Source of the DNA: Solibacillus merdavium
GTDB lineage: Bacteria; Bacillota; Bacilli; Bacillales_A; Planococcaceae
Reading direction: 5' to 3'
DNA: 64,000 nt
NCBI RefSeq assembly: GCF_014836935.1
Contig: NZ_JACSPW010000006.1
Span: 1 to 64,000 of the forward strand
The notes below the pieces were generated by a model that was not told where the DNA came from, searched no databases, and saw only the letters and a list, made by a program, of their open reading frames with translations. Below are positions 698 to 39,750 of the stretch, one piece after another. Both the position numbers and the translations under genes were made by a program. The number at the start of each line of letters is the position of its first letter. Positions within the stretch are counted from its first letter, which is position 1.

Positions 698-767
698 TTC
701 AACTGCCTGATTCTTTTCATTCATTCGCAGTATTAGAAGGCTCTCATTTATTCTCGATCGAAAAGTT

Positions 768-1225
768 TTTCTAATATCTTACCGAAATGTTCTAATAAAT
801 TTTAAAATGTTCTAATAAAATGAGGATTTGCTAATATATTCTGGAGTTCTTCTAATATACTGCGAAATCCGCAAATAAAGTTACCTGATTTGCTAATAAG
901 TTCATGCGATTTGCTAATAAAATGAAAAATCTTCTAATATCTTAGATCACCGCTGAAATGGGTTCAGCTATTTTTAATATCTGTTGCAATTGTTCTAATA
1001 TATCCCTCCGATTTGCTAATAAAATGAAAAATCTTCTAATATCTCAGATCGCCATTGAAATGGGTACGGCTTTTTCTAATATCCGTTACAATTGTTCTAA
1101 TATATCCCTTCAATTTGCTAATAAAACTAAAAATCTTCTAATATCTCAGATCTCCTATAAAATGGGTTCAGCTATTTCGAATATCTCCACCTGATTTTCT
1201 AAAAAAAACAAAAACCTTCTAATAA
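768..1225. repeat. Intergenic word array A (CTAATA words, ~20.4-bp pitch; 102-bp super-repeat)
   Basis: CTAATA or close variants begin at about 771, 792, 812, 831, 852, 872, 893, 914, 934, 974, 995, 1016, 1036, 1076, 1097, 1118, 1138, 1178, 1199 and 1219. Steps are 19-21 bp, with three double steps of 40. Two word contexts recur: TTCTAATA and TTTGCTAATAA. From 908 the array forms a 102-bp tandem repeat (units at 908, 1010 and 1112, the last decayed), five word slots per unit. It fills the gap between two convergent genes. No coding signature was found; function unknown. Confidence 0.85.
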
Positions 1226-1271
1226 CCGCGACCTTATCCCCTGCCCAGCCCCATACCCCGCTCAAAAACTA

Positions 1272-1309
1272 CAAAAAAACTCACTAAAAGCACTTCCACC
1301 TTTAGTGAG
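1272..1309 (-). terminator. Terminator of the SCO gene
   Basis: Inverted repeat CTCACTAAA / TTTAGTGAG (1280-1288 and 1301-1309), followed on the minus strand by a run of seven T (1272-1279). It lies just beyond the SCO stop codon. Confidence 0.8.
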
Positions 1310-1330
1310 CTCAAACTCAAACCTACGTTA

Positions 1331-1942
1331 TTATTTTAACCGTTCTTTAATTAATGCTTCCATATCGCTGGCAATTGTCTCGTATTGAACACCGTCTGTT
1401 CCTTGGGCTGTGCCGGAATAGTTTTTAACGGCTACTCCTTTTTCATCGACTAGGAAAAATGTATCTGCGTGAATAACTTGATCATTGCCTTCAATTGCTC
1501 TAACCGGTGTTTTGAACGAATTGACTGCGAGCTGCTCGATAAATTTCTGGTCGTAGCCTGTAAGCATATGCCATTTCGATTCATTTGATGGATTGTGGCG
1601 GCTTAAGTATTCCGTTAAGCGCTCTGGTGTATCGTAGTCAGGGTCTACGGAGAAGGCGACAATTTTATATTGCTCAAGCCCCTTCTTTTCGATCTCATCC
1701 TGTACTAGTTTCATATTTTGCGTCATAGGTGAACAAATTGTCGTGCAGCTTGTAAAGATGAACATTGCAAGCCATGGTTCCCCTTTTAAGCTATCTAGCG
1801 ATACTTCCTCATTACGATGGTCGGTTACTGTAAAATTAGAAATTTCGAAACTTGTCGTTGGTTTAAATTGATAATTACTGCAAGCAGAAAGTACTGTAGC
1901 GATTACGAGTACAAATGCTAATGCGATGTTTTTCTTTTTCAT
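1331..1942 (-). CDS. SCO1/SenC family lipoprotein (copper delivery to cytochrome oxidase)
   Basis: A 203-residue thioredoxin-fold protein. The N-terminus is a lipoprotein signal with lipobox LSAC (Cys21). The copper ligands typical of SCO proteins are present: CxxxC at Cys66/Cys70 (TSCTTICSP) and His158 (VIHADTFF). Family members (B. subtilis YpmQ type) help assemble the CuA centre of cytochrome c oxidase on the outer membrane face. Length is normal for the family. It is monocistronic, with its own promoter and terminator, and lies within 3 kb of the ccd cytochrome c biogenesis genes, which fits a respiratory role. Confidence 0.93.
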   Translation of the reverse strand: MKKKNIALAFVLVIATVLSACSNYQFKPTTSFEISNFTVTDHRNEEVSLDSLKGEPWLAMFIFTSCTTICSPMTQNMKLVQDEIEKKGLEQYKIVAFSVDPDYDTPERLTEYLSRHNPSNESKWHMLTGYDQKFIEQLAVNSFKTPVRAIEGNDQVIHADTFFLVDEKGVAVKNYSGTAQGTDGVQYETIASDMEALIKERLK

Positions 1943-1974
1943 TTATCTCTCTCCACTTCCCAAACATTACCTTC

Positions 1975-2003
1975 ATCTTATCGAATGTTGTCCACATTCT
2001 CAA
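1975..2003 (-). promoter_or_regulatory. Putative sigma-A promoter for the SCO gene
   Basis: On the minus strand TTGAGA and TAAGAT are separated by exactly 17 bp, about 33 bp upstream of the SCO start codon. The -10 match is only partial (4/6). Confidence 0.5.
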
Positions 2004-2034
2004 TAGTTATCGTGCGAAAGGTTATGTGTCAAAA

Positions 2035-2055
2035 TTGTGAAACCGCGCTTCACAA
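2035..2055 (-). terminator. Weak terminator after the YvrJ-like gene
   Basis: A perfect 7-bp stem (TTGTGAA / TTCACAA) starts one base after the stop codon of the YvrJ-like gene. On the minus strand it is followed by only TTTTG, so it is a weak intrinsic terminator. Confidence 0.5.
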
Positions 2056-2199
2056 CTAATGGCGTTCTAACGGGTTACTAAGAGAGACGAGTGCAGTATG
2101 AATCGCTTCAAGCTTTGTTTCAATTCGATATAGCAAATAAAATGAAATAAAGATTGGAAACGTTACTTCCTGAATGATTGCAATCCACTGGTCCATCAT
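2056..2199 (-). CDS. YvrJ family small protein
   Basis: A 47-residue protein with one hydrophobic helix near the N-terminus (WIAIIQEVTFPIFISFYLLYRI), then a charged tail with an IETKLEAI segment, the usual layout of the YvrJ family. The start is set at the ATG preceded by GGAAGGAGTGATT; a longer reading upstream has no ribosome site and crosses a terminator hairpin. It is last in the DUF1659-DUF2922-YvrJ cluster, a common Bacillales trio. Function is unknown; a membrane location is inferred from the helix. Confidence 0.8.
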   Translation of the reverse strand: MMDQWIAIIQEVTFPIFISFYLLYRIETKLEAIHTALVSLSNPLERH

Positions 2200-2218
2200 A
2201 ATCACTCCTTCCACTATA

Positions 2219-2251
2219 TAAAAAGCCGGTAAAGCATTGCACTTCACCGGC
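2219..2251 (-). terminator. Terminator between DUF2922 and YvrJ genes
   Basis: GCCGGT / ACCGGC stem (2225-2230 and 2246-2251) extended by a partial AAG/CTT stem. On the minus strand it is followed by TTTTTAT. It sits between the DUF2922 stop and the YvrJ start, so it would reduce read-through inside the cluster. Confidence 0.7.
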
Positions 2252-2258
2252 CTTCCTT

Positions 2259-2480
2259 TTAGTTGATCAGTTCTATAGCTGTCACATGACGCTCGACAAT
2301 TTTTGCGGACTTCTTCACGTTGAATAAAAATCCTTCTTTTGAGAATGCTGCCTGATCAATAATTGTTTGCATTGCTGCATTTACTTCAGCTTCCGTTAAA
2401 TTTGGTTTTGGGTCATTAATATTAATAGTCATTGTACTTCCAGCAGCATTCGCAAATGTTAATTGTAATACTTGTGCCAT
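2259..2480 (-). CDS. DUF2922 family protein
   Basis: A 73-residue protein matching the DUF2922 pattern: an N-terminal strand LQLTFANAAG, a conserved NDPKPNLTEAEV turn, then a helix and a C-terminal strand ending AIELI. It starts MAQVLQ after a GGAGGTGAG site. DUF1659 and YvrJ genes flank it, the usual arrangement in Bacillales. The molecular role is not known. No signal peptide or membrane segment is seen. Confidence 0.85.
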   Translation of the reverse strand: MAQVLQLTFANAAGSTMTININDPKPNLTEAEVNAAMQTIIDQAAFSKEGFLFNVKKSAKIVERHVTAIELIN

Positions 2481-2513
2481 ATGCTCACCTCCGATCCATT
2501 AGTTTTTGTTTGT

Positions 2514-2732
2514 TTAGGCTGTTACACTTTCTTTTTGCGTCTTCACAGATTCGATATAATCATAATCTGTTAACCCAACGATTGTTGTTGCGACATTGTG
2601 AAGTTGCTGTGCTGTTGCATTCAACGCCACATTTCTGAAAGTTGAGCTTTTAATAACCGGCTCATTAAATTCATCGACGCCCGTTTGATAGAATACTGTC
2701 AATGTTGCGGAAAGGAATCCGAATTCATTCAT
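2514..2732 (-). CDS. DUF1659 family protein
   Basis: A 72-residue protein of the DUF1659 family (pattern GVDEFNEPVIKSSTFRNV followed by a helix with a DYDYIESV segment). The start is placed at the ATG (MNEFGFL) because a near-perfect AAGGAGGTGAT site lies 8 nt before it; the in-frame GTG three codons earlier overlaps that site. First gene of the DUF1659-DUF2922-YvrJ group. Function unknown. Confidence 0.85.
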   Translation of the reverse strand: MNEFGFLSATLTVFYQTGVDEFNEPVIKSSTFRNVALNATAQQLHNVATTIVGLTDYDYIESVKTQKESVTA

Positions 2733-2851
2733 GTTTATCACCTCCTTGCCCTATATATGTCACGATTTTTCGAAAAAAGGGACAATGACGATGAAAAAAT
2801 TTACAAAACCTTATATAATAGACAATATTGAGTAAAATTGAGGTGAACATT

Positions 2852-3286
2852 GTGGGCTTAGAAGGCTGGTTTTTATGGTTTATATTATTTTGGGTTGTCG
2901 TGCTAGTTTCGCTTATGGGGATCGGTGGCTTCTTTATGTTCCGCAAATTTTTAAAGGCGCTTCCAAAACAGGATGGAAAATCGGATTTGGACTGGCAAGC
3001 CATTTATTTAGATAAAACGATCCATTTATGGGGTGATGAAGAAAAAGAGCTGCTTTCTGAACTTGTAAGTCCCGTACCTGAGCTATTTCGTCAAGTAGCT
3101 AAGGAGAAAATTGCAGGGAAAATCGGGGAAATTGCTATTGAGGAGCATGCTACGAAAATTGATTTGGATTTAATTATCCGTGGTTATATTATCGCCTCTC
3201 CTAAACGCGACCATAAATTTCTGCGTAAAAAACTGAAGGAAATGGAAATTGATACAACCCATTACGACCATTTATTTGAGGTTTAA
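2852..3286 (+). CDS. DUF2621 (YneK-like) membrane protein
   Basis: A 144-residue protein with one N-terminal membrane helix (WFLWFILFWVVVLVSLMGIGGFF) and a soluble helical domain. It resembles B. subtilis YneK (DUF2621). The start is set at GTG because GAGGTG lies 6 nt upstream; an in-frame TTG 24 nt earlier has no site. In B. subtilis yneK follows ccdA-yneI-yneJ in the same direction; here it is convergent with those genes and shares a terminator with them. Function unknown. Confidence 0.8.
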   Translation: MGLEGWFLWFILFWVVVLVSLMGIGGFFMFRKFLKALPKQDGKSDLDWQAIYLDKTIHLWGDEEKELLSELVSPVPELFRQVAKEKIAGKIGEIAIEEHATKIDLDLIIRGYIIASPKRDHKFLRKKLKEMEIDTTHYDHLFEV

Positions 3287-3293
3287 TGCGTAA

Positions 3294-3336
3294 AAAGGCT
3301 GCCCTTGAAAGTAAATAACTTTCATGGACAGCCTTT
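3294..3336. terminator. Bidirectional terminator between DUF2621 and ccdC genes
   Basis: Long inverted repeat AAAGGCTG..GAAAGT / ACTTTC..CAGCCTTT between two convergent stop codons, with A-rich and T-rich flanks. The GAAAGT-loop-ACTTTC core recurs in the terminator at 9204. Confidence 0.85.
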
Positions 3337-3338
3337 AT

Positions 3339-3833
3339 TTATGCAATGATTCGAGACTTTTCAAGCTTTTTGTACTTGATGAGCATACCGATACGCCACG
3401 GTAAAATCATGGAGAACGCCAAAATGAAGAACATTCCCGCAAGCTCGCCTATATCAAAGCTTTCTGCAAACAATAATTTTAAAATAATCCGTAAAACCAA
3501 TAATCCCACTAATATAAAAGGAAATGCCTTGGATTGCTTCATATATACTGAGTCATCCCGTATTTCAAATTTCGACGTAAGTATTAACACTACGGAAAAC
3601 AATAAGCCTAGAGCCGCCGCTTCCGCTATTTGAATAGGCGCCACACGAAATTCCTCAAAAATAAACATCAATGCCCCTGTTGACATGGCAAATGGAGGAA
3701 TGAGGATTTTTTTTGTAGATACCGGTTTTTTTTGTGCGCGCAGGCGTATAACCATGACAAACGAACCCATGATGACGGCCATAATCGTCGAACCAATTAA
3801 TAAATAGTGAGAAGGTATACTGTCAAACATCAT
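3339..3833 (-). CDS. ccdC: CcdC-like membrane protein (DUF1453)
   Basis: A 164-residue protein with about five predicted membrane helices; it matches the CcdC/YneJ family. It follows a CheY-like gene and ccdA in the same order as in B. subtilis. CcdC is linked to cytochrome c synthesis by that cluster, but in B. subtilis it is not strictly required. The start is one of two consecutive ATG codons after AGGAGG. The gene ends at the shared terminator. Confidence 0.88.
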   Translation of the reverse strand: MMFDSIPSHYLLIGSTIMAVIMGSFVMVIRLRAQKKPVSTKKILIPPFAMSTGALMFIFEEFRVAPIQIAEAAALGLLFSVVLILTSKFEIRDDSVYMKQSKAFPFILVGLLVLRIILKLLFAESFDIGELAGMFFILAFSMILPWRIGMLIKYKKLEKSRIIA

Positions 3834-3862
3834 ATTCCTCCTCTTATGCTGACAAATAAATA

Positions 3863-4228
3863 TTATGTTAAGTTGAGAACATTTGATGCGACCTCTTTTA
3901 ACTGCTCAGGCTGAAAAGGCTTTGTAATAAAATCTTTGGCACCACTTTCAATGGCGGATTTAATTTTACTCTGCTGACCAAGTGCCGTAATCATGATAAT
4001 ATTTGCATCCGAATGTTTAGCAGTTATTCTTCGGACCGCTTCGATGCCTGTCATAACCGGCATTGTAATATCCATCGTTACCAGATCAGGCAATAGCTGG
4101 TCATAAAGCAGAACTGCCTCTTTTCCATTGGCGGCCTCTCCCACCACTTCAAAGCCGTATTCCTTTAATATATTTCCGATTGTAACACGCATGAAAAGCG
4201 AATCATCCACAATCAAAACAGTCGGCAT
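3863..4228 (-). CDS. ccdB: CheY-like single-domain response regulator (CcdB/YneI)
   Basis: A 121-residue receiver domain with no output domain. The phosphorylation pocket is complete: Asp8/Asp9, Asp53 (VTMDITMP), Thr81 and Lys103 (ITKPF). It lies between ccdA and ccdC as yneI does in B. subtilis. No histidine kinase is adjacent. Its partner and output are unknown; placement suggests a link to the cytochrome c biogenesis genes. Confidence 0.9.
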   Translation of the reverse strand: MPTVLIVDDSLFMRVTIGNILKEYGFEVVGEAANGKEAVLLYDQLLPDLVTMDITMPVMTGIEAVRRITAKHSDANIIMITALGQQSKIKSAIESGAKDFITKPFQPEQLKEVASNVLNLT

Positions 4229-4283
4229 TTAACGATCACATCACTTTCCATAGTATAGCATGCTATTTCCAAGCATGGTACTG

Positions 4284-4994
4284 TTAGAATCCCTTAAAGC
4301 CATCGAAAATCGGCAAGAGAATATTAATAATGTACGTCAACCCATCAAAGAACAATAAAATTCCGACCGCTATCATAATATATCCGCCAATTTTAATAAT
4401 TTTTTGACTATGTTTGCGAATCCAGTTTAATCGTGAAATAAAGAACGACAATGTAAAGAATGGAATAGCAAACCCTAAATAATATGCGAGCATATACCAA
4501 ATCGCCGAATCGGGATTTGCTCCTCCGAGGGCAATAATTGATGCGAGTATTGGTCCTGTACATGGCGTCCAACCCGCTGCAAAAGCAAGGCCAATCAGCA
4601 CGGAACCAAAATAGCCGGATGGTCGGTTTTTGAATTGGAACTTACGGTCTTTCATTAAAAAGTCAACTTGCAATAAGCCGACAATCATTAAACCAAACGC
4701 AACAATTAAAATCGCACCTACTTGACGCAGTAAATCCTGATACTGGAAGAAGAAGTCTTTTGCTAAAGACGTTCCAAACCCTATTGCAATGAATATGATC
4801 GAAAATCCGAGCAAGAAAAATAAAGTATGTAATATGGCACGCTTTTGCATCATTCCTTTTTCGGTTTTGAGCTCATCGAGTGTCATGCCGGTAATGTATG
4901 ACAAAAACGCCGGGTAAAGCGGTAAGGTGCATGGTGAGATAAAACTTAGAAACCCAGCACCGAACGCTAAGAAGATATTTAAATCTGTATTCAT
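4284..4994 (-). CDS. ccdA: Cytochrome c biogenesis thiol-disulfide transporter CcdA
   Basis: A 236-residue protein with about six membrane helices and the two transmembrane cysteine motifs of CcdA/DsbD-beta: [18 protein letters not shown] near the N-terminus and AGWTPCTGP in the middle. It carries reducing equivalents across the membrane to extracytoplasmic thioredoxin-like proteins for haem attachment to cytochrome c. The ATG start at MNTDLNIF gives the B. subtilis length; an in-frame GTG 21 nt upstream lies on the ribosome site. First gene of ccdA-ccdB-ccdC. Confidence 0.95.
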
Positions 4995-5128
4995 GCTGCA
5001 TTCAATCTCCTTCACATTGATGCCTCAATCGTACCAAATTTTCCAATACATTACTCACTTTTTTAATGTGAACTTTTTTTGACAGCTGTGTGAGGTATAT
5101 GTGAAACGAAAAATGAAATGGTTTATCC

Positions 5129-5512
5129 CTACCGAATCATATCAATGACCAGCAAACTTGAATAAATGACTGATGTAAATAGTATAACGATGAAGATCGT
5201 AATTGTTTGAAATTTAATCGACCAACGCCAAACACATTCATGTGGATTTTCTTTTTTCCATCGAAGTGCCGCTTTAAAATTGATAAACCAGCAATGTAAA
5301 GTAACGATCAATGAAGGGAAAGTATATAACCCCATTAAAATCCCCACTTGCTGGAACGTTGTCGTCGTATATTTCCCGTAACTAATCACGAAATAAGGAA
5401 GTACAAACCAAAAAACGGATGTAAATAATAATACAATTGCTACTACTAAATGGAGCCATAAATATTCACTATGAACTTGCCTGTAATATTTTAATGCTGC
5501 TTCCACATTCAT
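5129..5512 (-). CDS. Four-helix integral membrane protein, unknown
   Basis: A 127-residue protein with about three to four hydrophobic segments, the first starting near WLHLVVAIVLLFTSVFWFVLP, and a charged loop RWKKENPHECVWRW. I do not recognise the family. The start is placed at the ATG with AGGA six bases before it. It stands alone upstream of ccdA on the same strand with about 130 bp between, so it could be a separate transcript. Confidence 0.7.
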   Translation of the reverse strand: MNVEAALKYYRQVHSEYLWLHLVVAIVLLFTSVFWFVLPYFVISYGKYTTTTFQQVGILMGLYTFPSLIVTLHCWFINFKAALRWKKENPHECVWRWSIKFQTITIFIVILFTSVIYSSLLVIDMIR

Positions 5513-5638
5513 CACCAATCCTATTCTTTTTCATTTACTATTCCCACTAATATAGGCAAATGAAACGAGAAAAGTGATTGATTTTTATATTCATGTGAAA
5601 AATTACCTCTACAATTCATCGATGAGAGTTGAAAAGAA

Positions 5639-6271
5639 CTAAAAAACTGAGGTTAATTCGTATAAATCTCTGTTAGAACGTAAATTCCATTCCGGCTCAA
5701 ATCGATTAATAATTGCATTTTTCAAGCTATTCATTTCCTTTTCATCCTCCATTGGATAAATAGCAAAATGGACGTCATTGTCCGGCAGCATTAACGTAAT
5801 ATTCGCATTCACATGACAATGAGTAGCCGTGCCGTCTCTGAAGCAGCCTTTCGCATATATATTACCTATATGTTGATTAAAGCGCTCTTTAAAGGTCCGT
5901 GCGCAAACCCCGCAAAATTTAAGCTCATTATTGACGATAATTGTATATATCCCTTTCTGCTTCAGTAATTCATCTTCCCCGTTGACGATAAAGCGTGTAT
6001 ATGTAAGATCTCCATAATTGTTTAGAAATTGCTTATAAAAGATGTTCCCCTCATCTTTTAATTGCTTTAACGCCTTTCCAGCTGGCCAATCTATAACATG
6101 CTGTGCATGCCGGCTCGCTTCCTCCTGTAGATGTTCGTATTTTTTTTGCAAAGTAAGTTCATTCAACGTTTTTTTATCGAAACTTACGAATAAATTTTCA
6201 ATCCCCTGTTCTAGTACAAGCAATTCAACTTTATTAAATTTAATCTTTTGCCCTTTTACTTGAATATGCAT
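5639..6271 (-). CDS. GIY-YIG nuclease-like protein
   Basis: A 210-residue protein. The C-terminal half has a GIY-YIG-like fold signature: GIYTIIVNNELKFCGVCART..ERFNQH, in which FCG replaces YIG, and a late NRFEPEWNLR that fits the conserved Glu and the terminal WN. The first ~100 residues are mostly helical and charged. The family cuts DNA or, in some members, RNA; with the altered YIG the activity is uncertain. ATG start with AAAGGGGAG. No partner gene is obvious. Confidence 0.65.
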   Translation of the reverse strand: MHIQVKGQKIKFNKVELLVLEQGIENLFVSFDKKTLNELTLQKKYEHLQEEASRHAQHVIDWPAGKALKQLKDEGNIFYKQFLNNYGDLTYTRFIVNGEDELLKQKGIYTIIVNNELKFCGVCARTFKERFNQHIGNIYAKGCFRDGTATHCHVNANITLMLPDNDVHFAIYPMEDEKEMNSLKNAIINRFEPEWNLRSNRDLYELTSVF

Positions 6272-6370
6272 ATTAGCTCCCCTTTCTATATAAATCCCCC
6301 ATTTACTTTAATTTCTATATAAATTTACAAAATCCTCTAAATATTTAATTTCTACTGTATTAGTACAATA

Positions 6371-6407
6371 AAAAAGCGACTCGCTCTATTTGAACGAATC
6401 GCTTTTT
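6371..6407 (-). terminator. Terminator of the CBS-domain gene
   Basis: AAAAAGCGA / TCGCTTTTT inverted repeat directly abutting the stop codon of the CBS-domain gene; T-run on the minus strand. Confidence 0.85.
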
Positions 6408-6409
6408 CA

Positions 6410-7051
6410 TTAAAAATTCTCTTTATCGAATATTTCAAGATCTATAATGCGCGCACCTTGCTTTGTAATAGCGGCTTCCAGCTCATCAACTGTAGACTGT
6501 TTAGCACCTTTAGTCAAAGTCATGATAACACGGCGCAAATAGGTAGTATCGTCATCCATCGAGAACACACAATGTAATGGCCATACCTTTTTAACTGCCG
6601 TTAGCACTTTAATTAATATGCCATCCGTATCCGGTAGCGCAACTGTAATCGCACAGCTGCCTGTTCTGTAACCCCATGCTTCTTCCAATAGCTCGAATAC
6701 TTTAGAATGAGGTAAAATGCCTGAAAAATTGCCTTTTGTATCAACTACGGCTAGGTATGGTAGTTGCTTAATGGAGTGAAACACTTCAAAAAACGAACTG
6801 TTTTCATGAATGAAAGCATCGGCTTCTTCTGTTAGTACCTTTACCGGTGACTTCATATCGCCATCTTTTAATTTATGTTCGAGCAATTCTACTTTATAGA
6901 TATTGCCGATAAATTTTTCGCCGGCTTCGTCCAGCACGGGAATGCATCGGTAGCCATTCTCATTTAATTGACCAAGTACATCTGAAATCAGGTCAGTTTC
7001 TTTAACATAGCTTACGTCTTTCTTTTTAACATACTTTTGTTTAACAAGCAT
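6410..7051 (-). CDS. CBS-pair plus ACT-like protein (CbpA-type)
   Basis: A 213-residue cytosolic protein. Two CBS repeats occupy roughly residues 1-125 (RCIPVLDEAGEKFIGNIYK and LPYLAVVDTKGNFSGILP). The remainder (about 135-213) looks like an ACT regulatory fold (CAITVALPDTDGILIKVLTAVKK). This order and length match the CbpA group, members of which bind cyclic di-AMP in Listeria; ligand binding here is inference. Strong AAAGGAGG site; monocistronic with its own terminator. Confidence 0.75.
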   Translation of the reverse strand: MLVKQKYVKKKDVSYVKETDLISDVLGQLNENGYRCIPVLDEAGEKFIGNIYKVELLEHKLKDGDMKSPVKVLTEEADAFIHENSSFFEVFHSIKQLPYLAVVDTKGNFSGILPHSKVFELLEEAWGYRTGSCAITVALPDTDGILIKVLTAVKKVWPLHCVFSMDDDTTYLRRVIMTLTKGAKQSTVDELEAAITKQGARIIDLEIFDKENF

Positions 7052-8482: not shown

Positions 8483-8497
8483 GGATTCGCGGACCTC

Positions 8498-12462: not shown

Positions 12463-12682
12463 AAAATAAGGGGAGATTGTTCCGTTATTTAAATGATGTA
12501 GCTCATTTTCAGGTTAAATAAGGGAACGTTTTACCGTTATTTCAAATAAAATCGTGGAATTTCTTGTTTTTTAGATCAATAACGGAAATCCCTTCCCTTA
12601 TTTTTACTATTTTTTATTTTATTTTCGAAATAAGGGAAATTCATTCCGCTATTTATCTCATTACACAATTCAATCTCCCTAC
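12463..12682 (+). repeat. Dispersed phased element, copy B
   Basis: About 200-220 bp. AATAA and TTATT words start at 12465, 12485, 12517, 12537, 12578, 12598, 12629 and 12649, steps 20-32-20-41-20-31-20, each 20-bp pair having the form AATAAsGG..CCGTTATT. The flank ATCTCATTAC..AATTCAAT recurs in copy D. It lies between two minus-strand genes. Confidence 0.85.
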
Positions 12683-14009: not shown

Positions 14010-15242
14010 ATGGACAAAAGTAAGGTTCAAGTAAGTGTCTGGTGCATTGTCAGTTTAACTTCAATTCCTCTAATCATGACGCTGGGAAATTCCATGCTTA
14101 TACCAGTGCTCCCGATACTCGAAGACAAGGTCGGGATCACATCATTTCAGTCAAGCATGATTATTACAAGCTATTCTATTGCGGCAATTTTCCTTATACC
14201 TGTAGCAGGTTATTTATCAGACCGATTTGGAAGGAAAATGGTAATATTACCTAGTTTAATCCTCGCTTTAATCGGTGGTCTTATTGCCGGGTTTGCTTCC
14301 TGGAAAATGGATGACCCGTACATGATGATCATTATTGGTAGGGTTATTCAAGGAATAGGTGCGGCCGGAGCAATGCCGATCGTAATGCCACTTGTAGGTG
14401 ACCTATACCAGGATGATGATGAAAAAATAAGCTCCACCTTAGGAATTATTGAAACGTCCAATACGTTCGGGAAAGTGTTAAGCCCCATTTTAGGTTCAAT
14501 ATTTGCAGCTATTTTATGGTTTCTGCCCTTCTTCTCTATTTCAGCGCTTAGTTTAATTTCTATTGCACTTATTTTTTTCTTTGTTAAAGTCCCTAAAGAA
14601 AAAGATGAACCCGTAAAATTCAAGAAATTTTTAAGTAATACGAAAGAAGTTTTCAAAGAGAAAGGCAAATGGTTGTATACCATATTTTTAAATGGTGTAC
14701 TCGTTATGCTGATATTATTCAGTATGTTATTCTTCTTATCCGACAACCTCGAAAAAGTTCATGATATAAAAGGTGTTAAAAAGGGTTTTGTACTAGCTAT
14801 CCCACTTTTACTATTGTGTATTTCTTCTTTTATTTCTGGTCGTAAAATTAAAGGCGACTTGAAAAGAATGAAAAAAATAATTATTATTTCGTTAATTGCT
14901 ATGTCTACAAGCATTGTTTTCGTAGGTTATACAAGCAAAAACCTCATTCTTTTGCTCATAGTAACAAGTATAGTCGGCATCGCCATTGGAGCACTCTTGC
15001 CTGCACTTGATACAATTATTACAGATAACATCAGAAAAGAACTAAGAGGCACAGTTTCTTCTTTTTATAGCTCAGCGAGATTTATCGGTGTTGCAGCCGG
15101 TCCCCCTATTATGTCACTCGTCATGAAAGACTATCTCAATGTCAGTTATATTGTGGCAGGTGTATTAGGATTTATCCTATTATTTGTTGTATTTAAATGC
15201 ATTAATGTCGAGGAAATTGAAAAATCCAAAGAAACAGCATAA
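14010..15242 (+). CDS. MFS drug-efflux type transporter
   Basis: A 410-residue protein with about 12 membrane helices. The MFS loop 2-3 motif is seen as GYLSDRFGRKMVILPSL, and the drug-proton antiporter motif C region as RVIQGIGAAGAMPIVMPLVGDLYQ. The second half has a further RGTVSSFYSSARFIGVAAGPP. This points to a multidrug or metabolite efflux pump in the plasma membrane. ATG start with GAGGTG five bases upstream. It ends at a terminator shared with the YqhV gene. Confidence 0.87.
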   Translation: MDKSKVQVSVWCIVSLTSIPLIMTLGNSMLIPVLPILEDKVGITSFQSSMIITSYSIAAIFLIPVAGYLSDRFGRKMVILPSLILALIGGLIAGFASWKMDDPYMMIIIGRVIQGIGAAGAMPIVMPLVGDLYQDDDEKISSTLGIIETSNTFGKVLSPILGSIFAAILWFLPFFSISALSLISIALIFFFVKVPKEKDEPVKFKKFLSNTKEVFKEKGKWLYTIFLNGVLVMLILFSMLFFLSDNLEKVHDIKGVKKGFVLAIPLLLLCISSFISGRKIKGDLKRMKKIIIISLIAMSTSIVFVGYTSKNLILLLIVTSIVGIAIGALLPALDTIITDNIRKELRGTVSSFYSSARFIGVAAGPPIMSLVMKDYLNVSYIVAGVLGFILLFVVFKCINVEEIEKSKETA

Positions 15243-17728: not shown

Positions 17729-17945
17729 GCAAAATAAGCGGAGATTTTACCGTTATTTGTTGACTGGAGCCGTTATCTTGCAGAAATAAGGGGAGATTTT
17801 CCGTTTATTTGAATTAAAAGCTTTCATTTTTATGTTTTTTGAACGAATAACGGTAATTTCTACCGTTATTTTGGCCTTTTTTTAATTTATTTTCTGAATA
17901 AGGGAAATTTCTCCGTCTATTTCATCAGTTACCTGCCCTACCCGT
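17729..17945 (+). repeat. Dispersed phased element, copy C
   Basis: Diverged copy of the element at 12463. Words start at 17733, 17753, 17785, 17805, 17846, 17866, 17897 and 17917, giving the same spacing 20-32-20-41-20-31-20 although the spacers share little sequence. It lies between the convergent nadR and methyltransferase genes. Confidence 0.8.
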
Positions 17946-28282: not shown

Positions 28283-28506
28283 GGGGAGGGCGATTGAATT
28301 ACGTAATGAGATAAATAGAGGAATGAATTTCCGTTATTTTTAAAATAACATAAAATACAGTAAAAATAAGGGAAGGGATTTCCGTTATTGACCTAAAAAA
28401 CATGAAAATTTATGATTTTATTTACAATAGCGGTAAAATGTTCCCTTATTTATCTTAAAATGAGCTACATCAATCAAATAACGGTAAAATCTCCCCTTAT
28501 TTTATG
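28283..28506 (-). repeat. Dispersed phased element, copy D (inverted)
   Basis: Reverse-oriented copy of the element at 12463; most of its sequence aligns, including the GATGTAGCTCATTTT spacer and the ATCTCATTAC flank. Words start at 28314, 28334, 28365, 28385, 28426, 28446, 28477 and 28497, steps 20-31-20-41-20-31-20. Confidence 0.87.
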
Positions 28507-33633: not shown

Positions 33634-33674
33634 ACACCGATGCTTTAAGATATTTTCACATTGTAAGTATTTAT

Positions 33675-33719
33675 GAATCAGCCTCTTCCTAATCGTTGAG
33701 ATTAAGAAGAGGCTGATTC
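33675..33719 (+). terminator. Terminator of hssRS
   Basis: GAATCAGCCTCTT / AAGAGGCTGATTC arms with an inner AATC/GATT stem and a CCTTTATAT tail. Confidence 0.85.
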
Positions 33720-33769
33720 CTTTATATAGAAAATTATCCAATCTCCTTAATGACTTAGAATTGCTAAAA

Positions 33770-33798
33770 AGGATAAGCCTATTACTTATGCTTATCCT
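33770..33798 (-). terminator. Terminator of the LCP-like gene
   Basis: Perfect 9-bp stem AGGATAAGC / GCTTATCCT, followed on the minus strand by TTTTTAGC. Confidence 0.8.
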
Positions 33799-33812
33799 CA
33801 TACAATCCTTAT

Positions 33813-34850
33813 TCAGTTAAATGTAGTTAACTCTTGTTTAACAGCTTGCAAAAAGTCTTCCTCAAATCTATAAATGTGTTTACCTACTGTCTTCCCTAAT
33901 GGTATGACGTCCGAAAACATTCCTTCATTTAAAGGCAACGATTTTATAGAATTAATCTCTCTAGGATAATCTACTAAATGATCCAGGGGTGTATTGGTTT
34001 CTATTTGAGAAAACAACTCTTTTAATTTTGCTTTTGGAATTTCGTTTTCTGCCTTATTCATTACAGCGTTTATTAGATTTATTAAGTTTTCATGATCCAG
34101 GTATACCCCATCTGTCGCAGCCATCATTAATGATAACACCTGCTCCCCGTTAAAATAATGTGTACCCTTTTCGAAATCAAAAGCCGCCTGTGTTACTCCT
34201 CTTAATCGAATATCTTTTTGTATTTCATACTCAATCCCATTCATCGATTCAATTAACTCTGAAACGGTTTTTAAATCAAGCACTGCATAATAATCAATTG
34301 GTATATCAAAAAACTTTGAAGCCGTCTTTTTTACATTTTCAGCATCGCCAAAAGAATAGGCAAACAATAATTTATCATAATAAAATGTTCCATCCTCATT
34401 CTCCGATATCGGGGCATAAGTATCATTAGGAAGCGAGACAACTTTTATCAACTTTTTATCTTTACTATAAGTAAGTAAAAGATTAAGGTATATTCGATTA
34501 TCCATAACTTCGGACTTTACCGTAATCAACGAGGTAGAAAACTCGGCTTCCAAGGCGTTTGATTCGCTTGCAACACCTTTGTTCGATTCTTGACTCAAAT
34601 TGCTACTATTAGATCTTTCAATAAAATCCCCGGAAAGCATTGATGGAAAAAACAGAATCATACATAAACCGACTACCAATAAAGATACTGTTATGGGAAC
34701 GAATTTTTTTGAAAAAACATTCTTTTGAGTATGAGAATTCTCGTCCTGTTTACGGATTTCTTCAAATACTGCATTACGTTCTTCCTTCGTAAATGTCAGG
34801 TGTTGATGAGACGAATTATGAATTTTTTCTCGTAATCGTTTATCTTCCAT
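33813..34850 (-). CDS. LCP-like protein fused to an anti-sigma-type N-terminus
   Basis: A 345-residue protein: cytosolic N-terminus (about 1-48), one membrane helix (FVPITVSLLVVGLCMILFFPS) and an extracytoplasmic LytR-CpsA-Psr domain (about 105-290; LPNDTYAPI, KLLFAYSFGD, DYYAVLDLKTVSELIESMNGI, GEQVLSLM). LCP enzymes attach polymers to peptidoglycan. Here the usual Arg of IPRDTY is Asn and the late arginines of the YVRSR-like segment are missing, so catalysis is doubtful. It overlaps the sigma gene by 11 nt and probably acts as its anti-sigma factor. Confidence 0.78.
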   Translation of the reverse strand: MEDKRLREKIHNSSHQHLTFTKEERNAVFEEIRKQDENSHTQKNVFSKKFVPITVSLLVVGLCMILFFPSMLSGDFIERSNSSNLSQESNKGVASESNALEAEFSTSLITVKSEVMDNRIYLNLLLTYSKDKKLIKVVSLPNDTYAPISENEDGTFYYDKLLFAYSFGDAENVKKTASKFFDIPIDYYAVLDLKTVSELIESMNGIEYEIQKDIRLRGVTQAAFDFEKGTHYFNGEQVLSLMMAATDGVYLDHENLINLINAVMNKAENEIPKAKLKELFSQIETNTPLDHLVDYPREINSIKSLPLNEGMFSDVIPLGKTVGKHIYRFEEDFLQAVKQELTTFN

Positions 34851-35367
34851 GAAGTTCTGCCTCCTTTAACATTGATTCTAATCGATGCTTCGCTCTTCTT
34901 AACCTGGTCTTTACGGTATTAACCGGAATATCTAATACATTGGCAATTTCCTCTGTCGATAAAGAATCATAATAATAAAGATAAACTACTTCCCGATACA
35001 CCTTTGGAAGAGAATAAATCGTATCTTTTATTTCTTCATTATTGTATTTGTCGATTACCTTTTTTTCAGTTGATGGTAATATAGACTTCGCAGTTTCATT
35101 GATAAAGCTTTTTACCTGCACCATTTTATAATTCCAGCTTTTTAAATAATCCTTACATTCGTTAATCGTAATTCGATAGAGCCATGTTTTGATATGAGCA
35201 TCGTACCGAAACGAATCAATGTTTTTATAGCATTTGATAAACGTATTTTGTACAAGATCCTTCGCAGTTTCTACATCCTTTACATAAGAAAATGCCAGCC
35301 GAACCAGCTCATTGCCATATTCAATCATTATTTTTTCTAATAGAAAATCCTTTTCCTCCCTGTCCAA
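34840..35367 (-). CDS. ECF sigma factor, LCP anti-sigma partner
   Basis: A 175-residue sigma-70 family protein: region 2 RLAFSYVKDVETAKDLVQNTFIKCYKNIDSFRYDAHIKTWLYRITINECKDYLKS and region 4 SLPKVYREVVYLYYYDSLSTEEIANVLDIPVNTVKTRLRRAKHRL. It resembles SigV/SigW-type factors for envelope stress. TTG start with GGGAGGGGGAG. The gene overlaps its LCP-like partner, so the two are translated together. Confidence 0.9.
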   Translation of the reverse strand: MDREEKDFLLEKIMIEYGNELVRLAFSYVKDVETAKDLVQNTFIKCYKNIDSFRYDAHIKTWLYRITINECKDYLKSWNYKMVQVKSFINETAKSILPSTEKKVIDKYNNEEIKDTIYSLPKVYREVVYLYYYDSLSTEEIANVLDIPVNTVKTRLRRAKHRLESMLKEAELHGR

Positions 35368-35480
35368 TTGACTCCCCCTCCCTTTACAACCTTCTTCAAA
35401 TTCTGCTATTAGACGATTACCAATTTATATTAGGTTCAATTTCCCAAAAAATCTTTATAGTTATTTTAATATATATTTCC

Positions 35481-35531
35481 CACAAAAAAATCATCTCTCC
35501 TCTAAGAAAAGTTATAGAGGGAAGATGATTT
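35481..35531 (-). terminator. Orphan terminator upstream of the sigma gene
   Basis: AAATCATCT..CCTCTA / TAGAGG..AGATGATTT stem, followed on the minus strand by TTTTTTTGTG. The gene to its right is on the plus strand, so no minus-strand gene ends here. It lies in the sigma leader region. Confidence 0.7.
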
Positions 35532-35624
35532 AAACCTGTTATGAAAGGTCGATTTGTCAAATATATCGTTATTTTCATCGCTACACTGGGATTATATGTT
35601 AAAATTAATAAAAGGGGTGTCTGA

Positions 35625-36068
35625 ATGAGCAACGTTTCTAACTATTTTAAAAAAATAATTTGGGTTATAGGATTAATAATATTAGTAAAATTAAGTTTCG
35701 ATTTCAAAATTCATCTGCAACAAACGGCACAAATGGAGTTCAATATTGTACCTGTTCTTTGGTATGATGTAATGATTTCACTATTGTTGGGCTGGTATAT
35801 TTCTATACTGCTAGTACAAAAGTGGTCAGTAAACGTTAATCATGCTTTATTATGGTGTGTAGCGGTTCCTTGTTTAATAATTTTATTAATCTATCCAACG
35901 GTTGTAACGCTGGCAGTAAATAAACTTATACCGGAAAGCTTTTCTTACAGCTTTATTACAGCTTGGTTCTTTAAAGTAGCGATGCCTTCCCCAAACGTAG
36001 TTGGCATTGTTGCAGGAATGACATTGGCAATAAGCATTTTCAGTAATGATTCCAAAGTGGCCAAATAG
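35625..36068 (+). CDS. Membrane protein of unknown family
   Basis: A 147-residue protein with about four membrane helices (first IIWVIGLIILVKLSF; later VMISLLLGWYISILLV, LLWCVAVPCLIILLIYP and NVVGIVAGMTLAISIF). ATG start with AGGGGTGTCTGA. Divergent from the sigma/LCP unit. I do not recognise the family. Confidence 0.7.
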   Translation: MSNVSNYFKKIIWVIGLIILVKLSFDFKIHLQQTAQMEFNIVPVLWYDVMISLLLGWYISILLVQKWSVNVNHALLWCVAVPCLIILLIYPTVVTLAVNKLIPESFSYSFITAWFFKVAMPSPNVVGIVAGMTLAISIFSNDSKVAK

Positions 36069-36274
36069 CGGTTTCAGTTTTATAGTTTACTTTTTCTTTG
36101 AGATTTAATAAACGTTTTAAATATTTCAATTCCTATATATAACGAAATGAAAAAAATGTTAGAGCAAATAATTTTGAGACAGTGTGTTCCCTCATTAAAA
36201 ACTGTGAAAATGACAGGTACATAGCTAAGGATAAAAGAACAAATTCTAATAATTTCTTGAAATAATGCATGTGC

Positions 36275-36502
36275 TTAACGTTTCGTAATATGATTAGGTT
36301 CATAGTCGATATTCTTTTTAATTTTGTTAAGATCCTTTTCTATTTTAGAAATAAGCATATGTATCTCTTCATTTTCTGAAGCGGTAAAAGTTTCACCTCT
36401 TCGTATATTTAAAATCACCGTTTGATTGACCAGTCTCAAACAAGATTTAATAAAGGCCAAATCCATTTTGATTGCTTCTTTACTTGTATCAATCCCATCC
36501 AT
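36275..36502 (-). CDS. Small helical protein, unknown
   Basis: A 75-residue charged protein with a likely coiled-coil tail (HMLISKIEKDLNKIKKNID). ATG start with GGAAGGGAG. No recognisable family and no close neighbours on the same strand. Confidence 0.6.
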   Translation of the reverse strand: MDGIDTSKEAIKMDLAFIKSCLRLVNQTVILNIRRGETFTASENEEIHMLISKIEKDLNKIKKNIDYEPNHITKR

Positions 36503-36575
36503 TTATACCACTCCCTTCCATAAATTATATAACATTATATAGTAGGAGTGTAAAATGTATGTCACAATAACAAAT

Positions 36576-37028
36576 TTAAAAATCTATGGATAAACGAATC
36601 ATATCTCTGCATTGTATACCGTTCTCAAAAATTTCTTCCTCGTAATGCTTAATAAAAAAATCAAAATCAATAGCGATAATTCGAAAACCACATTTCTGAT
36701 ATAAAGCTAATTGACTTAAACTTGAATTTCCTGTCCCGATTTCGATTGTTTTATATCCTTTACTCTTTGCAACACGTATTGCATCAGTGACCAATAATTT
36801 CCCCATACCTTTACCTTGATGTTCTTCAGCCACTGCTACATTTACTAATTCAACGGTTTTAGGTCTTGTTGGTAATAATACATATACTCCAACAACTTGT
36901 TTTTCGATTTCGGCTATATAACATTCGCCTCTCGTAACATATTCTTTAACTATACTTTCTGAAGGATCCGCCAATAACAGTAACTCCATTGGAATTATAT
37001 CTTGTTTCTCCAGTTTTCTTATAATCAA
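36576..37028 (-). CDS. GNAT family N-acetyltransferase
   Basis: A 150-residue GNAT: IRKLEKQDIIPMELLL, VVGVYVLLPTRPKTVELVNVAVAEEHQGKGMGKLLVTDAIRVAKSKGYKTIEIGTGNSSLSQLALYQKCGFR. The AEEHQGKGMGKLL loop binds acetyl-CoA, and the GTGNSS..LYQKCGF end is typical of Bacillales YjdJ/YhbS-like enzymes. The start is set at a TTG preceded by GGGGGA; an in-frame TTG 21 nt upstream overlaps that site. Substrate unknown. Confidence 0.83.
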   Translation of the reverse strand: MIIRKLEKQDIIPMELLLLADPSESIVKEYVTRGECYIAEIEKQVVGVYVLLPTRPKTVELVNVAVAEEHQGKGMGKLLVTDAIRVAKSKGYKTIEIGTGNSSLSQLALYQKCGFRIIAIDFDFFIKHYEEEIFENGIQCRDMIRLSIDF

Positions 37029-37257
37029 TGTCGATTCCCCCTTTTTCAACCATTATTCCATTTTCCGATTCCTACGTGAACATATTATTTATATTCCTCA
37101 ATTTTATTGCGAAAAAATCTAATATAAAACTGTTTTAAACCTTTAGATTTGGTTAAGTTTATGTGGTAAGTTTAGAATTCTTAAGATATTCTTAAGAATT
37201 CTTATCAGTTTTTATTAAGTTTTATGCGCTATGCTTGGTTTAAAGGAGAATTATTAT

Positions 37258-38052
37258 ATGAAAAAACTAATTTTTGTACTTATAGTTGCCGTTATAGGCT
37301 ATCAATTTTTTATGGGTAAACAAGTAGCTGCTCCAGATTTACCACAGCAGTTATCCCTAGAACCTTATGCAATTTCGAGCGGAAATCTTGTACTCGTCAA
37401 TCGGGACATTCAGCTAAAGCAGGACCCGACCAATTTAGCGCCAATCCCAGCTGATATCGCGGAAAATGTTATTGTTAATTCAGAATTTCTACTCGAGAAT
37501 CAGGCAATAAAGCCGCTCAAGCTACTTTTCGATGCAGCAACGAATGATCGAATTGAACATTTTATCATAAATAGTGCGTATCGCAGCGGTAAACTGCAGC
37601 AGCAGCTTTATGAAAAGCATGGAGCTGACTATGCGTTGCCATCCGGCTATAGTGAACATCAGACTGGCTTATCACTTGATATTGGTTCAACTGCCGGAAA
37701 AATGGAGAATGTCGATGAAGGTAAATGGTTGGAAGAACATGCAGCGGATTTTGGCTTCATCTTACGTTACCCGGAAGACAAAGTTGATGTGACTGGTATC
37801 AACTACGAACCATGGCATTTCCGCTATGTTGGCCTGCCCCATAGTTTGATCATGAAGAAGCAAAATTTCGTGCTGGAGGAATATATTACTTTTCTTAAAA
37901 AAGAGCAGTTTTTTACGACGGAAGTAAATGATACTACTTATTTCATCCAATATACCGACAATGAGACAACGGTTAACATACCCGATACTGCAAACTATAG
38001 AGTATCCGGCGATAATGAAAGCGGATTTATCATTACATCTATTATAGAATAA
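37258..38052 (+). CDS. D,D-carboxypeptidase of the VanY family
   Basis: A 264-residue protein with an N-terminal membrane or signal helix (LIFVLIVAVIGYQFFMG) and a VanY zinc-peptidase domain. The ligands are in SEHQTGLSLDIG (His and Asp) and EPWHFRYVG (His, with the base Glu just before). It trims the terminal D-Ala of peptidoglycan stems outside the cell. ATG start with AAAGGAG nine bases upstream; an upstream ATG has no site. No vanRS or ligase genes nearby, so general wall maturation is more likely than glycopeptide resistance. Confidence 0.87.
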   Translation: MKKLIFVLIVAVIGYQFFMGKQVAAPDLPQQLSLEPYAISSGNLVLVNRDIQLKQDPTNLAPIPADIAENVIVNSEFLLENQAIKPLKLLFDAATNDRIEHFIINSAYRSGKLQQQLYEKHGADYALPSGYSEHQTGLSLDIGSTAGKMENVDEGKWLEEHAADFGFILRYPEDKVDVTGINYEPWHFRYVGLPHSLIMKKQNFVLEEYITFLKKEQFFTTEVNDTTYFIQYTDNETTVNIPDTANYRVSGDNESGFIITSIIE

Positions 38053-38065
38053 TTTTTGGAATTAA

Positions 38066-38102
38066 AAATCGGCCATTTGCATTTAAGCAATGTGGCCGAT
38101 TT
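38066..38102. terminator. Bidirectional terminator, VanY / RarD genes
   Basis: Perfect 10-bp arms AAATCGGCCA / TGGCCGATTT with TTGC/GCAA inside, between two convergent stop codons. Confidence 0.87.
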
Positions 38103-38109
38103 CTTTTAG

Positions 38110-39024
38110 TTAGACACTTTTCGCATAAGCGATATGCTGTTTTCTTGCTTCGTGAACCTTTGATGCAGAAAAGATAAATACCGCGAGCCAGATGCAGAGG
38201 AATGTTACAAATTCTGTTGTAGTAAAGGGCTCTTTGTATAGAAAAATCCCCAGTAACAAACTGATTGTCGGCGATAAAAACTGGATGAAGCCCATTAAGT
38301 AAAGCGGAATTTTTTGTGCGCCCTTCGCAAAGAAGATAAGCGGAATGGCTGTAACAATACCACTACCGATTAAGAATAAATTCGTCTTCCAATCGATGTG
38401 CATAAAAGCAATTTCCGTCGTTTGCATTAAGTAAATATAGCTGATAATTGCGATAGGTAATATAAATAAAGTTTCAATCGCTAAACCTCGCGTTGCATCA
38501 AGCGGAATTTTCTTTTTGATGACACCGTAAGAGGCAAATGATAAGGCCAGTGCTAATGAAACCCATGGAATTGTACCACCTAAAAATGCCTGGTAGCCAA
38601 CGCCAACTGCAGCAATCAGTACAGCAACAGTAGTAGCTTTAGAAATTTTTTCTTTAAAGAAAATCAGCCCGAACAATACGGAAATGAGCGGATTAATATA
38701 ATAACCTAAACTCGCCTGTAGTAGATGATTGTTATTTACTGCCCAGATGAAAATTCCCCAATTGATGGAAACCACAACAGACGCGATAAATAGTAAAATA
38801 AAATTCTTCTTATTCTTCCATAGTATCTTTATATCGGAAATCGTTTCTTTATATTGGCGGATAATTAATATAAAGAGCGCTGTAAACACGAATGACCAAA
38901 TAACTCGCCCTACCAATATTTCCATGCTGCCAACATGATCGATTTGCTTCCAATAAAGTGGGACAATCCCCCACATGAAATAGGCACCCATTGCAAACAG
39001 GATACCCTTTTTTTGTTCTGACAT
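38110..39024 (-). CDS. rarD: RarD-type EamA family transporter
   Basis: A 304-residue protein with about ten membrane helices. The start GILFAMGAYFMWGIVPLYWKQIDHVGSMEILVGRVIWSFVF and the middle LLQASLGYYINPLISVLFGLIFFKEK are the RarD signature (chloramphenicol-sensitive protein family). It is likely a metabolite transporter; substrate unknown. ATG start with AAGGTGCAATA. Confidence 0.9.
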   Translation of the reverse strand: MSEQKKGILFAMGAYFMWGIVPLYWKQIDHVGSMEILVGRVIWSFVFTALFILIIRQYKETISDIKILWKNKKNFILLFIASVVVSINWGIFIWAVNNNHLLQASLGYYINPLISVLFGLIFFKEKISKATTVAVLIAAVGVGYQAFLGGTIPWVSLALALSFASYGVIKKKIPLDATRGLAIETLFILPIAIISYIYLMQTTEIAFMHIDWKTNLFLIGSGIVTAIPLIFFAKGAQKIPLYLMGFIQFLSPTISLLLGIFLYKEPFTTTEFVTFLCIWLAVFIFSASKVHEARKQHIAYAKSV

Positions 39025-39108
39025 TATTGCACCTTCTAGTATTTTTATATTTCAATTATAGATGTCGGAATTAAGGAAGTAAATGTTGATGTGTGGGGCA
39101 GGTGCTTT

Positions 39109-39716
39109 TATTCGCCACTTATTTTGTGATAATCGCCAGTTCTTCCTACATATTAGCCAATCACTCTAACTTTATCGTCAATTCAACATCGATATTCGTC
39201 ACCTAGCACCTTATATTCGCCACTTTCATTTTTATTAGCCACTTCAGCGCACTTATTCGTCATTTCAAACCCGATATTCGTCACTTAACACTACATATTC
39301 ACCCTTTTGAATGCTGGGGAAATTATTCGCCACTTATTTTGTGATAATCGCCAGTTCTTCCCACATATTAGCCAATCACTTCAACTTAATCGTCAATTCA
39401 ACTTCGATATTCGTCACCTAGCACCTTTTATTCGCCACTTTCATTTTTATTAGCCACTTCAGCGGACTTATTCGTCAGATCAACACCTATATTCGTCACT
39501 TAACACTACATATATGCCCTTTTGAATTGCGGGAGAAATTATTCGTCACTTATTCTATGATATTAGTCAATTCGTCTAACTTAATCGTCAATCACTCTAA
39601 CTTAATCGTCAATTCAACACTGATATTCGTCACCTAGCACCCTATATTCGCCACTCCTAAGCACTTATTCGTCATTTCAAGCCCGATATTCGTCACTTAA
39701 CACTACATATTCGCCC
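39109..39716 (+). repeat. Intergenic word array E (TATTCG/TATTAG words, 21-bp pitch)
   Basis: About 29 words (TATTCGYCA, TATTAGCCA, TAATCGTCA and close variants) start at 39109, 39130, 39151, 39172, 39193, 39214, 39233, 39254, 39275, 39296, 39324 and so on to 39708. Nearly every step is exactly 21 bp; exceptions are 19 twice, 28 and 29. A super-repeat of 215-216 bp (starts 39109, 39324, 39540) carries ten words per unit; the third unit is shortened and reordered. It fills the space between two minus-strand genes. Non-coding. Confidence 0.9.
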
Positions 39717-39750
39717 CTATCCATCTCCAACACCGCTCCACTAATGGAAT

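What the first reader, a model, noticed from the sequence alone, without database searches (positions are those of the whole stretch)
720..39725. Three different word families obey one helical-pitch rule
Arrays A (CTAATA), B-D (AATAA/TTATT with GG/CC edges) and E (TATTCG/TATTAG) have different words but all place an AT-rich core on a ~10.4-bp grid, always between genes. Array A on the minus strand reads TATTAG, which matches a word of array E. They may be members of one class, each with its own specificity, perhaps read by related DNA-binding proteins or shaped by one expansion mechanism. No described bacterial repeat (REP, ERIC, BOX, bcr) known to me has this layout.
Basis: partly seen in the sequence, partly recalled or inferred. 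Interest (0 to 1): 0.9.

Follow-up and report, generated by a model that had tools for sequence, protein, structure and literature searches.

The report
Gene-end DNA arrays with lineage-specific words
Scattered between the genes of Solibacillus and related bacteria are rows of short DNA words spaced two turns of the helix apart, usually next to gene ends; different lineages use different words on the same spacing, which looks like docking rows for an unknown family of DNA-binding proteins.

Summary
Arrays A and E are real and related. Of same-strand neighbour distances under 30 bp, 325 of 325 (A) and 98 of 99 (E) are 19-21 bp. Both use one scaffold of about nine sites with an odd 19-bp step (31 of 42 A rows, 9 of 18 E rows) but different words (TKCTAATA; GRCGAWTA). 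A occurs in 11 of 16 Solibacillus, 2 of 25 Ureibacillus and 0 of 220 other genomes of the family. Other lineages carry other words at that pitch: TGTCTATTAA, CGCTCATAA, CGCTGATAA, AGCCGATTAAA, CGTTGTAAAA. In 1.6 Mb scanned word-blind, all 8 intergenic rows of four or more exact words had pitch 20-21, 41 or 51-52. Between orthologues, word positions differ 3.1%, the rest 13.8%. 38 of 40 A arrays adjoin a gene 3' end, often past a terminator. B-D are a separate dyad element, cores on a ~10.2-bp grid. Best reading: dispersed gene-end rows of sites for lineage-specific DNA-binding proteins, probably insulators or roadblocks; protein and function are inferred, not shown.

The parts
769..1224 (+). 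Array A: 17 recognised words T(T/G)C(T/A)AA(T/A)A; one element followed by about 2.7 copies of a 102-bp (five-unit) duplication
1273..1309 (-). Terminator-like hairpin plus T-run of the SCO1/SenC gene, between that gene and array A
   Evidence: read by eye; similar hairpins, by eye, in all 8 array-bearing orthologues
1331..1942 (-). SCO1/SenC gene whose 3' end faces array A (PF02630)
164..697 (+). ORF of 177 aa, convergent with the SCO1 gene, 72 bp before array A; no Pfam match
39109..39715 (-). Array E: 26 recognised words G(A/G)C(G/T)A(A/T)TA in three groups of 9, 9 and 8 (repeat period 215 bp); the first group has eight 21-bp steps and no 19-bp step
39749..39796 (-). Terminator-like hairpin between the ABC transporter gene and array E
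   Evidence: read by eye; not seen in the short intergenic of six relatives
38110..39024 (-). EamA transporter gene; a promoter-like TTTACT...TATAAT lies between array E and its start
   Evidence: promoter by eye
39809..41581 (-). ABC transporter gene, upstream neighbour of array E
12465..12653 (+). Array B: element of four dyads AATAASGG-N9-CCSTTATT
17733..17922 (+). Array C: diverged copy (73% identical) of the same four-dyad element
28314..28501 (-). Array D: four-dyad element in reverse orientation (88% identical to B)

Best explanation
Arrays A and E belong to a class of dispersed extragenic elements of the Solibacillus family. Each is a row of asymmetric 9-13-bp sites repeated every two helical turns, so that all sites face one side of the DNA. 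Each site has a variable half that differs between lineages and a constant A/T-rich half (AWWA(A)). I propose that a sequence-specific DNA-binding protein binds the sites as an ordered row of about nine units and forms a nucleoprotein block. The block usually adjoins the end of a transcription unit, often just past its terminator, where it would stop read-through and insulate the neighbouring gene. Different lineages carry proteins of different specificity. SHOWN: the phasing, the dispersal, the shared scaffold with different words, stronger conservation of words than of spacers, gene-end position, terminator proximity for A. INFERRED: the protein, cooperative binding, and the insulating or roadblock function, which is the least certain step.
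For: Phasing. Same scaffold with different words. Constraint on words: 36 of 1169 mismatches at word positions against 223 of 1618 elsewhere in 17 orthologous pairs, Fisher p 3e-24 (earlier count). Gene ends: 20 of 40 arrays convergent and 2 divergent, against 21 and 45 of 152 intergenic regions of this genome (p 4e-6 and 7e-4); own-genome arrays alone 8 of 19 convergent, p 0.005. Terminators: found on 41 of 58 sides whose gene points at the array and 1 of 22 pointing away. At the SCO1 locus an array follows the terminator in all 8 clade-I genomes, also where the sequence beyond it differs, and in both orientations. At the EamA locus G000 and G005 hold a hairpin plus array E where six relatives have about 85 bp and no array. 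Other words at the same pitch. No RNA fold: z from -1.7 to +2.3 for three arrays, both strands.
Against: No binding protein was found or tested. Selection on words does not say what reads them. 17 of 58 facing sides showed no terminator with my crude finder, and for 20 arrays with other words the excess was weak (14 of 27 facing, 4 of 13 away). Avoidance of promoters alone could give the gene-end bias. Eight of 16 Solibacillus species have no array at the SCO1 terminator and evidently manage without one. Blind samples of three A-less Solibacillus (G003, G010, G014) showed no strong array. The shared scaffold of A, E and G009 could be common descent rather than a structural need.
Confidence: 0.5

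Rival explanations
1. Selfish short mobile element: the word row is the binding platform of a transposase or other mobilising enzyme, lineage-specific words reflect diverging enzymes, and the gene-end position reflects survival of harmless insertions.
For: Dispersal, empty and filled sites, an array inverted in place between two species, tandem duplications, many similar B copies.
Against: No terminal inverted repeats or target-site duplications were recognised by eye, though no close empty site was available. A dead element should not keep words conserved more than spacers at fixed orthologous loci.
Confidence: 0.25
2. Intrinsic DNA mechanics: phased A/T blocks bend or wrap DNA (for example for gyrase or HU) at gene ends, without a sequence-specific reader.
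For: All words carry an A/T half in phase; gene-end position as recalled for E. coli BIMEs, which bind gyrase.
Against: The GC-containing half is kept too: the C at word position 3 of A differs in only 2 of 146 aligned sites between orthologues. One A/T block per two turns is a poor bend design (my inference).
Confidence: 0.1
3. RNA element: words act in 3' untranslated or read-through RNA as sites for an RNA-binding protein or for decay control.
For: Position downstream of genes.
Against: Both orientations occur at the same gene; tandem orientations are mixed (12 against 6; 8 against 1 in the own genome); no fold; no Rfam match in the window; one-base precision of spacing suits duplex DNA.
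Confidence: 0.07
4. DNA identity label, such as an uptake or segregation signal with lineage dialects.
For: Lineage-specific words; uptake sequences of Haemophilus also form terminators (passage in PMC5217627).
Against: Only tens of clustered loci in the two genomes listed at length (G000; G008); no test of uptake; strands looked mixed by eye in G008, whose origin was not located.
Confidence: 0.05
5. Chance or low-complexity artefact of A+T-rich spacers.
For: The genome is 36% GC.
Against: Control patterns near zero (16 against 132); conservation at orthologous loci.
Confidence: 0.01

Closest known systems
REP / BIME / REPIN elements with RAYT transposases
   Same: Many extragenic copies, lineage-specific sequence; gene 3' ends and both orientations as recalled
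   Different: REPs are defined as palindromic and stem-loop forming (PMC12306157, passages seen). These words are asymmetric direct repeats with no fold, and Y1/RAYT-type transposases (PF01797) were not found in G008 and G012, which are rich in arrays.
ERIC, BOX, bcr and similar dispersed repeats (recalled)
   Same: Dispersed, intergenic, about 100-200 bp
   Different: Recognised by overall sequence or structure; here mainly words and their helical spacing are conserved between copies, and the word differs between lineages. The B-D element is closer to this kind.
Iterons and plasmid centromeres with ParR-type binding; multi-site transposon ends bound by TnsB (recalled)
   Same: Direct repeats of about 20-22 bp spacing bound by an ordered row of one protein
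   Different: Those are single loci on a replicon or paired transposon ends; these are tens of chromosomal loci at gene ends. No cognate protein is known.
DNA uptake sequences with dialects (USS/DUS; recalled, USS-in-terminator passage seen)
   Same: Lineage-specific words near terminators
   Different: Uptake words are single sites in very many copies, not rows on a helical pitch.
Spo0A boxes, TGNCGAA (recalled)
   Same: Many array E words contain TGRCGAA
   Different: A and other words do not match; recalled boxes lie at promoters. A lead only.

Membership tests
REP/BIME | Multiple extragenic copies | tested here: met
REP/BIME | Palindromic, stem-loop forming unit | tested here: not met
   148-nt pieces of three A arrays, both strands: z -1.7 to +2.3; words are asymmetric direct repeats. 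The B element does score z -3.0 and -2.3.
REP/BIME | Cognate Y1/RAYT transposase in bearing genomes | tested here: not met
   PF01797 in 9 of 16 genomes; none in G008, G012, G002 and G015, which carry A arrays. G000 itself has one.
REP/BIME | Gyrase, IHF or Pol I binding (recalled) | not testable with these tools
   needs binding assays
MITE (non-autonomous transposon) | Terminal inverted repeats and target-site duplication | tested here: inconclusive
   none recognised by eye in the copies read; relatives with empty sites are too diverged to define edges
CRISPR array | Long near-identical repeats with unrelated spacers | tested here: not met
   repeat is 8-13 bp; spacers are inherited and drift by point mutation between orthologues
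Structured RNA of Rfam 15 | Covariance-model match above gathering score | tested here: not met
   0 matches in the whole window
Simple tandem repeat / satellite | Head-to-tail copies alike over the whole unit | tested here: not met
   within the arrays TRF scores the 102- and 215-bp duplications and three short stretches at 21-23 bp; most 19-21-bp units share the word, spacers only weakly
Two-turn array class described here (A, E, G009, G011 and other-genus words) | Words at 19-21 bp, variable half plus AWWA(A) half, intergenic | tested here: met
   B-D do not meet it

The most novel reading that the evidence does not exclude
A fast-diverging protein-DNA recognition system at gene ends: a family of related DNA-binding proteins, each lineage with its own word, assembles rows of about nine units on a conserved two-turn scaffold to form bacterial insulators. 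Whole sets of sites switch words together with the protein while the scaffold stays, so one genome can carry two sets (A and E) at once.
Probability: 0.4. Interest if true: 0.92.

Novelty: categorically new. Interest (0 to 1): 0.85.

Why it matters
If right, one bacterial family holds a widespread, unrecognised layer of chromosome organisation at transcription-unit ends, with a word code that changes between lineages while its geometry does not. That gives a natural series for studying how a DNA-binding specificity and all its genomic sites change together. It also gives ready-made baits for finding the protein.

Tried and rejected
Chance and A+T bias: rejected by control patterns and by conservation. 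RNA structure: rejected. REP/RAYT: rejected as membership. Phage origin: 13 IMG/VR stretches match the three-word A pattern; of the nine chains my script could follow, five lie in ORFs and the longest has five words at exactly 20 bp. Matches outside Solibacillus and Ureibacillus (84 stretches, 80 listed and examined): 37 chains, 17 inside ORFs, 20 not; of those 20, 15 have three words, four have four and one has five. I treat them as chance or coding repeats, but no chance expectation was computed for that scan, so they stay partly unexplained. Relation to replication strand: looked mixed by eye in G008. Literature: ten searches of the open PMC library listed no paper that I recognised as describing such arrays; PMC12306157 and PMC5217627 were seen as passages, all others as listings. 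Subscription journals and preprints were not searched, so absence from print is not shown. A proteome comparison to find the reader protein was not possible. One search stopped on a script error after 16 rows and was redone; one search ran on nothing because one search had failed. Dropped before counts: two A rows at stretch ends, and stretches L019 and L028, which held no row of four words; L345 and L347 were left out, which does include the three 51-bp rows of G252. Tools for similarity to annotated phage, plasmid and E. coli records, structure prediction and RNA models were not used.
Full report
WHAT IS THERE. The window is contig C53 of a 3.78-Mb genome. Array A (769-1224) lies between convergent genes. 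Array E (39109-39715, words on the minus strand) lies between an ABC transporter gene and an EamA gene.

PHASING. Same-strand neighbour distances of TKCTAATA, measured without chaining, were 19 (51), 20 (88) and 21 (186), with nothing at 1-18 or 22-29; the next clusters are at 39-42, 58-63 and 79-84. Most loci were fetched because they hold arrays, and sister-species loci are not independent, so the shape of the distribution is the evidence, not the counts. E words give 19 (10), 20 (2), 21 (86), plus one at 29. The fullest A elements have nine sites with steps 20,20,19,21,21,21,21,21 or 21,20,19,21,21,21,21,20, site 6 often TTCAAATA or TTCTAAAA. 12 of 42 A rows have exactly nine recognised words, and 31 of 42 have an explicit 19-bp step. 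E elements carry similar steps (L315: 21,20,19,42,21,21,21; L101: 21,20,19,21,21,21), the 19 being explicit in 9 of 18 rows and missing from the first group of the window's array E. G009 arrays with the word TGTCTATTAA also have a 19 step (L129: 21,21,19; L087: 21,19,21,21). Words changed; the scaffold largely stayed.

DISPERSAL. Word E by similarity: 12 matches at 10 places in the own genome, and matches in 7 of 16 Solibacillus. The B element: 54 matches here and 48 in G005, none in the other 14; the matches include second, reverse-strand matches to the same element and only 40 candidates per genome were scored, so they are not element counts.

CONSTRAINT. In 17 orthologous pairs (13 G000/G005, 4 G001/G004), geometry-anchored word positions 1-8 differ in 36 of 1169 and positions 9-21 in 223 of 1618, with a minimum of 0 of 146 at position 5 and 16-23% at 13-16. 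Sites were laid out from recognised words in the first sequence, which lowers the word rate somewhat; doubling it would still leave a gap.

POSITION. Of 40 A arrays with both neighbours (2 more at stretch ends dropped), 20 are between convergent genes, 18 between tandem genes and 2 between divergent genes. Own-genome intergenic regions of 150 bp or more are 21, 86 and 45 of 152 (crude ORF calls). Own-genome arrays alone: 8, 9 and 2 of 19. Terminators were found on 41 of 58 sides facing the array and 1 of 22 facing away, 36 of the 41 with the T-run 18-58 bp from the array. For 20 arrays with other words (three of them 51-bp rows), 8 are convergent, 11 tandem and 1 divergent, with terminators on 14 of 27 facing and 4 of 13 away sides, a much weaker contrast.

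TWO LOCI ACROSS 16 SPECIES. Past the SCO1 terminator, all 8 clade-I genomes have an A array: G000 and G005 in one orientation, six in the other; in G004 and G006 the sequence beyond the array differs from that in the other four, yet the array stays with the SCO1 terminator. The other 8 genomes have a terminator-like hairpin (by eye) and no array. Between the ABC and EamA genes, G000 and G005 have a hairpin and E (784 and about 340 bp); six relatives have about 85 bp, no A or E words and no hairpin by eye. Arrays therefore appear to be gained, or lost, as units. One array is inverted in place between G000 and G005 (L026, L111).

OTHER WORDS. Blind scans of A-less Solibacillus found TGTCTATTAA (G009) and TTATGAGCGAAA (G011); no strong array in G003 (193 kb), G010 (100 kb) or G014 (60 kb), nor with that first scan in the 17 stretches of Ureibacillus and other genera. 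Genus g3 has TTATGAGCG/TTATGATCA rows of up to 24 sites at 20-21 bp, in 11 of 31 genomes by similarity; neighbour distances 20 (76) and 21 (26), one 17, nine at 39-42. Genera g30 and g33 gave rows of 4-5 exact six-mers at 20-21 bp, with words CGCTGATAAA, GTCGATAAA, AGCCGATTAAA and CGTTGTAAAA (the consensus words rest on only 2-5 sites each). Read in one orientation, the words align as a variable half with G or C followed by AWWA(A). In 85 stretches (1.603 Mb) not chosen for arrays, exact rows of four or more gave 8 intergenic cases, with pitch 20, 21, 21, 21, 41, 51, 52, 52; the 3 coding cases had 27, 40, 45. Three of the eight are from one genome (G252). The 51-bp rows in L146 hold TGTCC...GGACA dyads. 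With three copies allowed, other intergenic pitches appear once or twice each and 21 bp leads with 6. The 400-kb own-genome sample had no exact four-word row and no A array; it held three degenerate E arrays and B dyads in three stretches.

MECHANISM. Spacing held to about one base on duplex pitch, constraint on a 9-13-bp site, independence of orientation, and gene-end position together favour a DNA-bound protein row that insulates transcription units. The protein, its cooperativity and the insulation are inferred. Mobility, DNA mechanics and RNA models are weighed as rivals.

NOVELTY. No membership test for REP, CRISPR, Rfam families or simple tandem repeats was passed in full, and MITE features were inconclusive. 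Ten open-literature searches listed no description that I recognised, but large parts of the literature were out of reach.

Noticed in passing
window 12465-12653, 17733-17922, 28314-28501: A dispersed ~220-bp four-dyad element (B and D in a group mostly 83-91% alike, C in a more diverged one), many copies in this genome and in G005, none found in 14 other Solibacillus genomes.
   Followed up: partly
L026:3841-4012 and L111:1911-2082: The same A array lies in opposite orientation relative to conserved flanks in two sister species; two sites are missing in G005.
   Followed up: partly
L146:9410-9660 and 14485-14800, L147:5300-5480: In one Ureibacillus genome (G252), intergenic rows at 50-52-bp pitch (five turns); two of them hold TGTCC...GGACA dyads, with similar DNA in 4 of 25 genomes of the genus.
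   Followed up: partly
window 39109-39715: Many array E words contain TGRCGAA, which resembles the recalled Spo0A box TGNCGAA; not tested.
   Followed up: no
G008:C1: Of about 39 strict A loci (merged by eye from 100 of 106 matches listed), only 3 lie between 1.45 and 2.75 Mb of the 3.99-Mb contig; origin and terminus were not located.
   Followed up: no
L253-L258, SCO1 3' flank: Beyond the SCO1 array the sequence differs in G004 and G006; in the other four it looks like a cobalamin riboswitch (recalled, not tested).
   Followed up: no
L170:1645-1794 and other loci: 20 TTCTAATA chains outside ORFs in distant phyla, mostly three words; one in a Bacteroidia bin has five words (82,19,21,20). Chance or real, not decided.
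   Followed up: partly
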